This document shows positions 12,060-14,593 of a stretch of DNA of 64,000 nucleotides, in pieces (the first letter of the stretch is position 1; every line of letters starts with the position of its first letter). The notes below the pieces were generated by a model. The model saw nothing but the letters and a program-made list of their open reading frames with translations. It made no database searches and was not told where the DNA came from. This DNA comes from Candidatus Rokuibacteriota bacterium (GTDB taxonomy: Bacteria > Methylomirabilota > Methylomirabilia > Rokubacteriales > CSP1-6). The position numbers were made by a program, and so were the translations under genes. The DNA lies in assembly GCA_016184365.1 (NCBI GenBank), contig JACPCW010000075.1, forward strand, positions 164,351 to 228,350, in the 5' to 3' direction.

Positions 12060-14261
12060 ATGATCGCCCGGCGGAAGTCCCGCCAGATTCAGCTGGGCAC
12101 GCTGAAGGTCGGCGGCGACGCGCCGATCACCGTCCAGTCGATGACGAAGACGGACACGCGGGACGTCGAGGCGACGCTGCTCCAGATCTGGGCGCTGGAA
12201 GCCGCGGGCTGCGACATCATCCGCTGCGCCGTGCCGGTGCGCGAGGCCGCCGAGAAGCTCGGTGAGATCAAGCGCCAGATCCGCATCCCGCTCGTCGCGG
12301 ACATCCACTTCAATTACAAGCTCGCGCTGATCGCGCTCGAGCAGGGCGTCGACGGCCTGCGGCTCAATCCCGGCAACATCGGCGGCAAGCGGTTCGTCGA
12401 GGAGGTCGTCGCCTCCGCGCGCGACAAGAAGATTCCGATCCGTATCGGCGTCAACGCCGGGTCGCTCGAGAAGGACCTGCTCGAGCGGCATGGCGGCCCG
12501 TCGGCCGAAGGCATGATCGAGTCCGCGCTCCGGCACATCCGCATCCTCGAGGACTGCAACTACACCGAGATGAAGATCTCGCTGAAGGCGTCCGACCCGC
12601 GGATGATGATCGAGGCCTACCGGGGTCTCGCCGGCAAGGTCGACTATCCGCTCCACCTCGGCGTGACGGAAGCGGGCACGCCGGGCGTCGGGACGATCAA
12701 GTCCGCCGTCGGTCTCGGCGCGCTGCTGTCCGAGGGTATCGGCGACACGATCCGCGTGTCGCTCTCCGCGGATCCCGTCGAAGAGGTGCGCGTCGGCATC
12801 GACATCCTGAAAGCGCTCGGCCTCCGGAAGGGCGGTCTCACGTTCGTCGCGTGCCCGTCGTGCGGGCGCGCCGACGTCGATCTCGTCAAGCTCGCGAAGG
12901 AAGTCGAGGACGAGTTCAAGGGCCTGAACGAGGAGATCCACATCGCCGTGATGGGGTGTCTCCCGCCGGGCGAGATGGTCGTGACGCGCGACGGGCCCAA
13001 GCCGATCGAGACGGTTGTCGAGAGCGACGAAGTGCTCACGCACGCGGGGCGGTACGGCAAGGTCCTGTGGACGACGAGTCACACCTGGAACGGGGACGTC
13101 GTGGAGATTCATCCGACGGGGTTCGCGCCGTTCCGCGTGACCGCGAATCATCCGGTCTGGGCGTTTCCGCGGCCGCGAACGACGAAGGCCGGTCGGGAAC
13201 GGTCGCCGCGGATCGCGACGGTCCTCGGCGGCGACACCGCGCCGCGCTGGGTCCCCGCCGGCGAGCTGACGCCGGGCTGGGTGGTCGCGTCCCCCGTTCC
13301 GCAGCACAAGGAGGATCGCGCGACGATCGTCGCCGACGGGCTGGGCGAAATCCCGATCGACGACGACTTCATGACGCTCGCCGGCTACTACCTGGCCGAG
13401 GGCACGCTCTCGGGGAAGAACCGGAAGCCCTACCAGCAGTTCTTCTATTTCCACGAGCGCCAGACGGCGTACGTCGACCGCCTCTCGGGCATCCTGCGCG
13501 GCCTCGGGCTCAGCGTCGACGTCCGGTACCGGCGACACACGGCGGAGGTGGTCACGCACTCGCTCGCGCTCGGCCGGCTGCTCGAGTCAGAGTTCAGGCA
13601 CGGCGCCGACCGGAAGCGTCTTCCGCCATGGATGGAGTCGCTGCCACACGACAAGCAGCGCGCCCTCATCCGGGCGCTGTGGGAAGGCGACGGCTACACC
13701 GGGTGCGTGAGAGGGTACACGCGCGCGACGTACTGCACGTCGTCCCATCGCCTGGGCATCCAGGTGCACCAGATTCTGCTGCGGCTGGGCGTCGCCGCGT
13801 TCCTGCATCATCGCGACCAGCGCGGCCGCAAGCGCAACTGGGTCGTGTCGGTGACGTCGCGGCAGGCGCTCGCGCGGCTCGGCGACATCCTCGGCGTCCC
13901 GCTCGTCGCTGGTGAGCGGTCCGACACCGGACAGGTGGCGCTCGACGACTCCGCGCTCTACGTCGGCGTCCGCGCGGTCAAGCGCCTGCCGTACGAGGGA
14001 GCCGTCTACAACCTCGAGGTCGAGGGCGATCACTCGTTCGTCACGCCGGGCGCGGCGCTGCACAACTGCGAGGTCAACGGGCCCGGGGAGGCGCGCGCGG
14101 CGGACATCGGTGTCGCCGGTGGCAAGGGCATCGGGCTCATCTTCAAGAACGGCGAGGTCATCAGGAAAGTGCCGGAAGCCGAGATCGTGCAGGCCATGCG
14201 CGAAGAGGTCGAGCGGTTCCTGGCCGAGCGCCGCGCGGCGACGGCCGGAGTGGCGAGCTGA
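12060..14261 (+). CDS. ispG: 4-hydroxy-3-methylbut-2-enyl diphosphate synthase (IspG/GcpE) interrupted by an intein
   Basis: Converts MEcPP to HMBPP in the MEP pathway with a [4Fe-4S] cluster. The reading frame is 733 codons, far above the usual 360-370. Removing residues 300-669 leaves 363 residues with all expected features: VQSMTKTDTRD, ADIHFNYKLA, LRLNPGNIG and the ligand pair Cys265/Cys268 in ACPSCGR. The third ligand, Cys670, and the ligand-like Glu677 fall in CEVNGPGEA right after the intein. In E. coli the Cys and Glu are likewise seven apart (305 and 312). The ATG at 12060 follows GGGGGTG. The C-terminus overlaps the next gene by one base. Confidence 0.97.
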   Translation: MIARRKSRQIQLGTLKVGGDAPITVQSMTKTDTRDVEATLLQIWALEAAGCDIIRCAVPVREAAEKLGEIKRQIRIPLVADIHFNYKLALIALEQGVDGLRLNPGNIGGKRFVEEVVASARDKKIPIRIGVNAGSLEKDLLERHGGPSAEGMIESALRHIRILEDCNYTEMKISLKASDPRMMIEAYRGLAGKVDYPLHLGVTEAGTPGVGTIKSAVGLGALLSEGIGDTIRVSLSADPVEEVRVGIDILKALGLRKGGLTFVACPSCGRADVDLVKLAKEVEDEFKGLNEEIHIAVMGCLPPGEMVVTRDGPKPIETVVESDEVLTHAGRYGKVLWTTSHTWNGDVVEIHPTGFAPFRVTANHPVWAFPRPRTTKAGRERSPRIATVLGGDTAPRWVPAGELTPGWVVASPVPQHKEDRATIVADGLGEIPIDDDFMTLAGYYLAEGTLSGKNRKPYQQFFYFHERQTAYVDRLSGILRGLGLSVDVRYRRHTAEVVTHSLALGRLLESEFRHGADRKRLPPWMESLPHDKQRALIRALWEGDGYTGCVRGYTRATYCTSSHRLGIQVHQILLRLGVAAFLHHRDQRGRKRNWVVSVTSRQALARLGDILGVPLVAGERSDTGQVALDDSALYVGVRAVKRLPYEGAVYNLEVEGDHSFVTPGAALHNCEVNGPGEARAADIGVAGGKGIGLIFKNGEVIRKVPEAEIVQAMREEVERFLAERRAATAGVAS
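12957..14066 (+). mobile_element. Intein with LAGLIDADG homing endonuclease, inside ispG
   Basis: A 370-residue in-frame protein intron. Block A begins with Cys1 (CLPPGEMVVT). Block B has the TxxH motif, T62 and H65, in FRVTANHPVWAF. The endonuclease motifs are LAGYYLAEGTL (141-151, acidic E148) and LIRALWEGDGY (237-247, acidic D245). Block F is AVYNLEVEGDHSFV (349-362, His359), and block G ends His369-Asn370 followed by Cys+1. Every class 1 splicing residue is present, with no stop or frameshift, so it should splice and may still home. The insertion point is the codon for the third Fe-S ligand of IspG. Confidence 0.96.
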
Positions 14262-14593
14262 TGGGTCAGTACCGCACGCACGTGTTCGTGTGCACGTCGG
14301 GCGAGACATGCCCGTCGCAGGGCGACGTCGAGAAATACGTGAAGTACCTGCGCGGCGAGGTCGTGAAGGCCAAGCTCCAGGCCGACGTCCGCATCAACAA
14401 GGCCGGTTGCTTCTCGCAGTGCGGCCACGGGCCGATGTTCGTCGTCTACCCGGACAACGTGTGGTACGGCGGCGTGCAGGAATCCGACCTCCCGGAGATC
14501 TTCGCGTCGCACATCGTCGGCGGCAGGCCCGTCGAGCGGCTCGTGTACGAGCCCGGCGTCAAGGGCGCGAACAAGAAGCCGGACGCGCACTGA
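14261..14593 (+). CDS. Thioredoxin-like [2Fe-2S] ferredoxin
   Basis: A 110-residue thin ferredoxin. Cys11 and Cys17 (VCTSGETC) plus Cys50 and Cys54 (GCFSQCGHGP) are the four cluster ligands, in the usual spacing of the Shethna/TRX-like family. VVYPDNVWYGGV is another family trait. ATG overlaps the ispG stop by one base, so the two are translationally coupled. IspG needs two low-potential electrons per turnover, so this protein is a good candidate donor; that is inference from position only. Confidence 0.88.
   Translation: MGQYRTHVFVCTSGETCPSQGDVEKYVKYLRGEVVKAKLQADVRINKAGCFSQCGHGPMFVVYPDNVWYGGVQESDLPEIFASHIVGGRPVERLVYEPGVKGANKKPDAH

What the first reader, a model, noticed from the sequence alone, without database searches (positions are those of the whole stretch)
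12957..14066. Intein with homing endonuclease inside IspG (GcpE)
A 370-residue insert in an otherwise normal IspG has every class 1 splicing feature: Cys1, TxxH block B, block F, and terminal His-Asn followed by Cys. It also has two LAGLIDADG-type motifs with their acidic residues. I recall no described intein in this enzyme, the essential penultimate step of the MEP pathway. An intact endonuclease and intact frame suggest a recent or active element.
Basis: partly seen in the sequence, partly recalled or inferred. Interest (0 to 1): 0.93.

Follow-up and report, generated by a model that had tools for sequence, protein, structure and literature searches.

The report
Intein at IspG's iron-sulfur cysteine
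A predicted self-splicing protein insert (an intein) interrupts the isoprenoid-making enzyme IspG directly before a cysteine that likely holds its iron-sulfur cluster, so the enzyme would probably stay inactive until the insert removes itself; the same insert at the same site is encoded in two bacterial phyla, including the named species Armatimonas rosea.

The parts
12060..12956 (+). N-extein: IspG residues 1-299, barrel domain and start of the Fe-S domain
   Evidence: GcpE match to residues 8-301; aligns with solved IspG 3noy
12852..12863 (+). Cys265-x-x-Cys268 (CPSC), predicted cluster ligands
   Evidence: both invariant in 38 aligned precursors; IspG cluster held by three Cys and one Glu (PMC9919496, passage)
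12957..14066 (+). intein, 370 residues
   Evidence: profiles, model and fold match, exact junctions against empty alleles
12957..12959 (+). Cys1, predicted first splicing nucleophile
   Evidence: Cys in 162 of 162 readable N junctions
13140..13151 (+). block B T-x-x-H (T62, H65)
   Evidence: 102 of 102 inteins over 200 residues
13320..13913 (+). LAGLIDADG endonuclease domain (intein residues about 122-319)
   Evidence: aligned range of I-DmoI structures; LAGLIDADG_3; absent from the mini-inteins
13377..13403 (+). LAGLIDADG motif 1 (LAGYYLAEG) with E148
   Evidence: E in 96 of 102
13668..13694 (+). LAGLIDADG motif 2 (IRALWEGDG) with D245
   Evidence: D in 96 of 102
14061..14066 (+). terminal His-Asn
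   Evidence: HN in 159 of 162 readable C junctions, N in 162 of 162
14067..14258 (+). C-extein: IspG residues 670-733
   Evidence: match to 3noy from residue 309 of that chain
14067..14069 (+). Cys+1 = Cys670 (Cys300 of spliced IspG), splicing residue and predicted Fe-S ligand
   Evidence: Cys in 162 of 162 readable C junctions; one of three invariant extein Cys in 38
14088..14090 (+). Glu677, predicted fourth cluster ligand
   Evidence: invariant in 38; a glutamate ligand is stated in PMC9919496

Best explanation
Bases 12957-14066 encode a class 1 intein with a LAGLIDADG endonuclease domain inside IspG, directly before a cysteine that is very probably an iron-sulfur ligand; it is predicted to excise itself after translation and so to complete the enzyme. 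Inferred steps: Cys1 attacks its own peptide bond, the chain is passed to Cys+1, Asn370 cyclises, and a 363-residue IspG is released. Only then would the ligands on the two sides of the insert (Cys265 and Cys268 before it, Cys300 and Glu307 after it, spliced numbering) come together to hold the cluster. At the DNA level the endonuclease would cut empty ispG alleles at the conserved codons around the site, and repair would copy the intein in. Deletion that is not exact would damage a predicted cluster ligand, which would help the element persist.
Against: No splicing or cleavage was observed; all evidence is sequence and prediction. Hint_2, Intein_splicing and intein_Nterm fall below their curated cut-offs. 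Six of 102 relatives lack the E and six lack the D of the LAGLIDADG motifs, and two carry Lys for the penultimate His. That Cys300 is a ligand rests on invariance, alignment and recalled structures, not on a structure solved here. In 2481 of 2485 pairs the intein is no more alike than the extein, so recent transfer is rare in this set. The precursor model shows the Fe-S domain at pLDDT under 50 (residues 258-280, 282-297, 671-681), which suits the idea, but no model of the spliced enzyme was made as a control.
Confidence: 0.9

Rival explanations
1. The insert has lost splicing and is a permanent domain of a long IspG.
For: No splicing was shown; three splicing-domain profiles are below cut-off.
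Against: C1, the terminal Asn and Cys+1 are conserved in all 162 readable junctions on each side, mini-inteins keep the splicing half and drop the endonuclease, and 36 of 46 relatives' alleles on the tree are empty at the exact site. In the precursor the predicted ligands on either side are separated by 370 extra residues.
Confidence: 0.04
2. Splicing works but the endonuclease no longer cuts; the intein is inherited vertically and repeatedly lost.
For: Intein and extein distances are correlated (Mantel r 0.49, p 0.001), and the intein is more alike than the extein in only 4 of 2485 pairs.
Against: Both acidic residues are kept in this gene, and each in 96 of 102 relatives. Third positions change much more than second ones in the endonuclease. 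Empty and full alleles alternate among close relatives, and four pairs around P0042/P0014 have inteins more alike than exteins.
Confidence: 0.25
3. The insert is an assembly or binning artefact.
For: The host genome is a draft of 146 contigs, and two relatives' loci (G058, G033) do look mis-joined.
Against: The gene lies inside a 228 kb contig. The same architecture is found in 145 relatives with full-size inteins, including Armatimonas rosea.
Confidence: 0.01

Closest known systems
Archaeal VMA inteins with endonuclease (TliVMA, PDB 7qss/7qsu; PhoVMA, 7qst) and intein endonuclease II (2cw7)
   Different: Other hosts; only 18-22% identity
Pyrococcus abyssi MoaA intein (redox trap; PMC3922620 passage)
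   Same: Intein with a native Cys-3/Cys1 disulfide that can control its activity; a precedent for redox control. That MoaA is a radical-SAM Fe-S enzyme and where the site lies are recalled, not checked
   Different: The IspG site has no Cys at -3 (AVMG|C), so that same trap cannot form
RfbH/E1 inteins (own genome L002 and 50 relatives)
   Same: Related intein (36% identity), also directly before a cysteine of an Fe-S motif (C-x57-C-x1-C-x7-C, spacing recalled)
   Different: PLP enzyme with a [2Fe-2S] motif (recalled); separate group next to a UDG4 intein in the tree
Mycobacterial SufB and DnaB inteins (PMC8891592, PMC6195587; search listing and abstract starts only)
   Same: Inteins in essential proteins, one in Fe-S assembly, one described as an oxidative stress sensor
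   Different: Different hosts; whether their sites are metal ligands was not checked

Membership tests
Class 1 intein | N-terminal nucleophile (Cys or Ser) at residue 1 | tested here: met
   Cys1 in the window and in 162 of 162 readable N junctions among 168 relatives, query included
Class 1 intein | Block B T-x-x-H | tested here: met
   T62/H65 in 102 of 102
Class 1 intein | Terminal Asn, usually after His, followed by Cys/Ser/Thr | tested here: met
   HN|C here; N and Cys+1 in 162 of 162 readable C junctions, HN in 159, KN in 2, SN in 1
Class 1 intein | Hint (HINT) fold | tested here: met
Class 1 intein | In-frame insertion with an intact host protein when removed | tested here: met
   Empty alleles join exactly at the site
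Class 1 intein | Protein splicing | not testable with these tools
   needs expression or proteomics
LAGLIDADG homing endonuclease | Two motifs with acidic residues and the LAGLIDADG fold | tested here: met
LAGLIDADG homing endonuclease | Cuts the empty allele | not testable with these tools
   only the patchy distribution speaks for it
Redox-gated inteins (MoaA type) | Extein Cys at -3 able to pair with Cys1 | tested here: not met
   residues before the site are A-V-M-G

The most novel reading that the evidence does not exclude
The intein is an iron-sulfur checkpoint. Its splicing residue Cys+1 is itself a cluster ligand, so iron, oxidant or nitric oxide at that thiol would stall splicing and throttle isoprenoid synthesis, tying the MEP pathway to the redox and iron state after translation. 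One intein lineage would have colonised ligand cysteines of at least four unrelated Fe-S enzymes (IspG, RfbH/E1, family-4 UDG, radical-SAM activases), making Fe-S ligands a recurrent intein niche.
Probability: 0.12. Interest if true: 0.8.

Novelty: new member of a known kind. Interest (0 to 1): 0.55.

Why it matters
It adds an enzyme of isoprenoid synthesis that is probably essential, and oxygen-sensitive as I recall, to the hosts of inteins, with many alleles, natural mini-inteins of 141-142 residues and a named carrier, Armatimonas rosea (cultured, as I recall). Because the splicing cysteine is very probably also a cluster ligand, it gives a clean system for asking whether protein splicing can gate the assembly of a metal cofactor, an open question about whether inteins serve their hosts.

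Tried and rejected
Rejected: permanent domain (splicing residues kept in all readable junctions, empty alleles exist). Rejected: a unique or recent insertion (161 matches with E <= 0.001, query included; two phyla). Rejected: a MoaA-type Cys-3 redox trap (no Cys at -3). Weakened by my own data: the idea that these inteins choose Fe-S ligands. In the same similarity set, several C5-methyltransferase inteins sit before a PCQ-type cysteine, which I recall as catalytic, and the IMPDH intein before what I recall as its catalytic cysteine. In a sample of high-scoring intein junctions from the same family, 86 of 90 could be read; only 7 had Cys+1, of which 3 were the UDG site, 2 a P-loop, 1 RtcB-like and 1 ribonucleotide reductase (hosts named by eye). 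So the firm statement is 'functionally critical cysteine', of which Fe-S ligands are one kind. The tree set was partly found by similarity, so the closeness of IspG, radical-SAM, RfbH and UDG4 inteins is partly built in; the UDG4 row is also short and on a long branch.

Led nowhere: plasmid records (77 with a match, none covering 80% of the query); viral contigs (80 of 137 loci kept, best 35% identity; I did not look into their hosts); Rfam at gathering threshold and tRNA scans of the window (none). Left out of the tree: L067 (second, distant copy in G029), L087 (not parsed), loci with cut or broken alleles (L012, L014, L015, L062, L063, L065; L063 reads as an empty allele cut by its contig end), and L085 and L086, not matched by my pattern. 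Allele DNA was fetched for only part of the 99 genomes. In some searches and 90 rows were chosen with a pattern that required Cys1; one search repeats the junction count without that requirement.

Full report
What is there. ORF 12060-14261(+) reads through 733 codons. Residues 1-299 and 670-733 are IspG (GcpE 1.2e-142; NF001540 476 bits against a cut-off of 345) and align with solved IspG 3noy, meeting at its residues 309-310. Residues 300-669, bases 12957-14066, are the insert. It carries Cys1, T62-x-x-H65, two LAGLIDADG motifs (E148, D245), His369-Asn370 and is followed by Cys. LAGLIDADG_3 and intein_Cterm are above their cut-offs; Hint_2, Intein_splicing and intein_Nterm are below theirs. 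The neighbours are an ordinary order: an M50 protease with PDZ domains (RseP-like), ispG, a 110-codon ORF without Pfam match, a class II tRNA synthetase with editing domain (proline type by eye), RimP, NusA.

Relatives. A search of 5.8 billion proteins with the intein region gave 161 matches, query included (120 listed), and one with an Armatimonadota-type member gave 79, four of them replicative helicases. The IspG entries listed make 168 different proteins. With patterns that allow any residue, the N junction could be read in 162, with Cys1 in all 162, and the C junction in 162, with terminal Asn and Cys+1 in all 162; the last two residues are His-Asn in 159, Lys-Asn in 2, Ser-Asn in 1. By the stricter pattern, both junctions are read in 156: 145 full-size, 2 intermediate and 9 mini-inteins of 141-142 residues; the other 12 are mostly fragments or shifted frames. 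Named sources are Candidatus Rokuibacteriota MAGs and one Candidatus Methylomirabilota MAG, entries named Fervidibacter, Fimbr... (name cut) and Armatimonadaceae, and the species Armatimonas rosea, phylum Armatimonadota.

Presence and absence. Of 99 related genomes searched, 96 matched some part of the query, IspG or intein. In 46 alleles used for a tree, 36 are empty, 9 full and 1 mini. The label needs 10 changes; shuffled labels need 9.2 on average and all 500 shuffles are as low, so the intein is spread without regard to kinship. Of the two other members of the window's genus, G002 is empty and G001 (82% complete) gave no match. Among 71 Rokuibacteriota-type sequences (2485 pairs) inteins average 66.8% and exteins 84.9% identity, with Mantel r 0.49 (p 0.001); only 4 pairs have the intein more alike, all with P0042 or P0014. 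Between these and 13 of the other type, inteins average 41.1% and exteins 46.9%. In nine full alleles the codon-position differences are p1 0.247, p2 0.174, p3 0.490 for the endonuclease, 0.260, 0.227, 0.540 for the splicing parts and 0.121, 0.080, 0.392 for the exteins, so both intein parts are constrained, less than the host. This is the picture of an old, site-specific mobile element with gains, losses and endonuclease decay, not of a recent arrival.

The site. In 38 aligned precursors the extein cysteines that never vary are C265, C268 and C670, and E677 is invariant too. A review states that IspG's [4Fe-4S] cluster is held by three cysteines and a glutamate (PMC9919496, passages read). 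That Cys670 (Cys300 after splicing) is one of them is therefore a strong inference, agreeing with E. coli Cys305 as I recall it. The genome has one ispG match, an ispH and no HMG-CoA reductase match at 90% completeness, so the MEP pathway is probably its only route to isoprenoids. In the precursor model the barrel and the intein are mostly above pLDDT 80 (block means) while residues 258-280, 282-297 and 671-681 are under 50. That suits a Fe-S domain that cannot form before splicing, but there is no control model.

The wider pattern. The window's genome has 11 intein_Cterm matches over the cut-off. Reading the ORFs (and, for the end of C53; hosts by eye except where named), four have Cys at +1, and three of these stand before Fe-S motif cysteines: IspG; RfbH/E1 (NF011936 625 bits; spliced spacing C196-x57-C254-x1-C256-x7-C264, and the same -58 Cys in 29 of the 33 proteins whose N junction could be read, out of 51); [quoted passage not shown] the +1 Cys aligns with Cys84 of chain 1ui0 and Cys89 of 1l9g; that four cysteines hold the cluster is in PMC5295032, passages; which four is recalled). 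Five radical-SAM relatives (P0203, P0214, P0217, P0220, and L064 from G040) have the intein before the third Cys of C-x3-C-x2-C. In a tree of 50 inteins the 27 IspG inteins form one group (88/95), next to the radical-SAM ones (81/87), and the UDG4 intein falls with RfbH (99/94); the sample was partly chosen by similarity, and UDG4 is a short row on a long branch. Against an Fe-S rule: related inteins also precede cysteines of methyltransferases and IMPDH that I recall as catalytic, and only 3 of 86 readable junctions in a sample of high-scoring matches were Fe-S sites.

Mechanism. Shown: the anatomy, the conservation, the exact empty site, the scattered distribution, and the invariant cysteine at +1. 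Inferred: splicing by the class 1 pathway, inactivity of the precursor, homing into empty alleles, and persistence because inexact loss would damage a ligand. Untested: any sensitivity of splicing to iron or redox state. A precedent for redox control is the Pyrococcus abyssi MoaA intein (PMC3922620, passages), but its Cys-3 has no counterpart here.

Literature. Searches for intein with IspG (1 paper, whose IspG mention is in a reference title), with gcpE (0), with Rokubacteria (0), with hydroxy-3-methylbut-2-en (0) and for inteins with Fe-S cluster and coordinating cysteine (0) found no description of this intein. The library holds only openly licensed papers; the intein survey sought is not held. 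JGI names some fragments intein/homing endonuclease, so annotation pipelines do see the domain.

Noticed in passing
genome G000: 11 intein C-terminal matches over the cut-off in one bacterial genome; hosts by eye include DnaE, RecA, PcrA/UvrD-like helicase, NrdJ, an AAA ATPase P-loop, SMC P-loop and a DUF362-like protein.
   Followed up: partly
L002 745-3183 (G000:C27): Intein in RfbH/E1 directly before the first Cys of a C-x1-C-x7-C Fe-S motif; 50 relatives listed, the C junction before CxC readable in 45 of 51 including this one.
   Followed up: yes
L055 1862-2851 minus strand (G000:C4): 146-residue mini-intein in family-4 uracil-DNA glycosylase before a likely Fe-S ligand Cys; inteins at the same site seen also in G002, G008 and G014.
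   Followed up: partly
L058 (G000:C53, contig end): One open frame begins like SMC and ends, after an intein, like GyrB (by eye); looks like a chimeric assembly across two inteins.
   Followed up: no
L181, L184 (G008:C166): One 1962-codon frame with three intein C-terminal matches, by eye a ribonucleotide reductase; one junction reads HQ|C and another intein seems to begin about 12 residues on.
   Followed up: no
L062 (G058) and L012 (G033): ispG alleles in which intein and extein pieces are mis-joined or partly deleted; could be assembly mixing of full and empty alleles or real decay.
   Followed up: partly
window 14261-14590 plus: 110-codon ORF just after ispG without Pfam match; by eye like a small ferredoxin/thioredoxin-like protein.
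   Followed up: no
proteins P0014, P0016, P0042, P0043: Inteins more alike than their host exteins in 4 of 2485 pairs; candidates for recent horizontal homing.
   Followed up: no
L198-L277: Viral contigs carry related inteins (80 of 137 loci kept, best 35% identity); hosts not examined.
   Followed up: no
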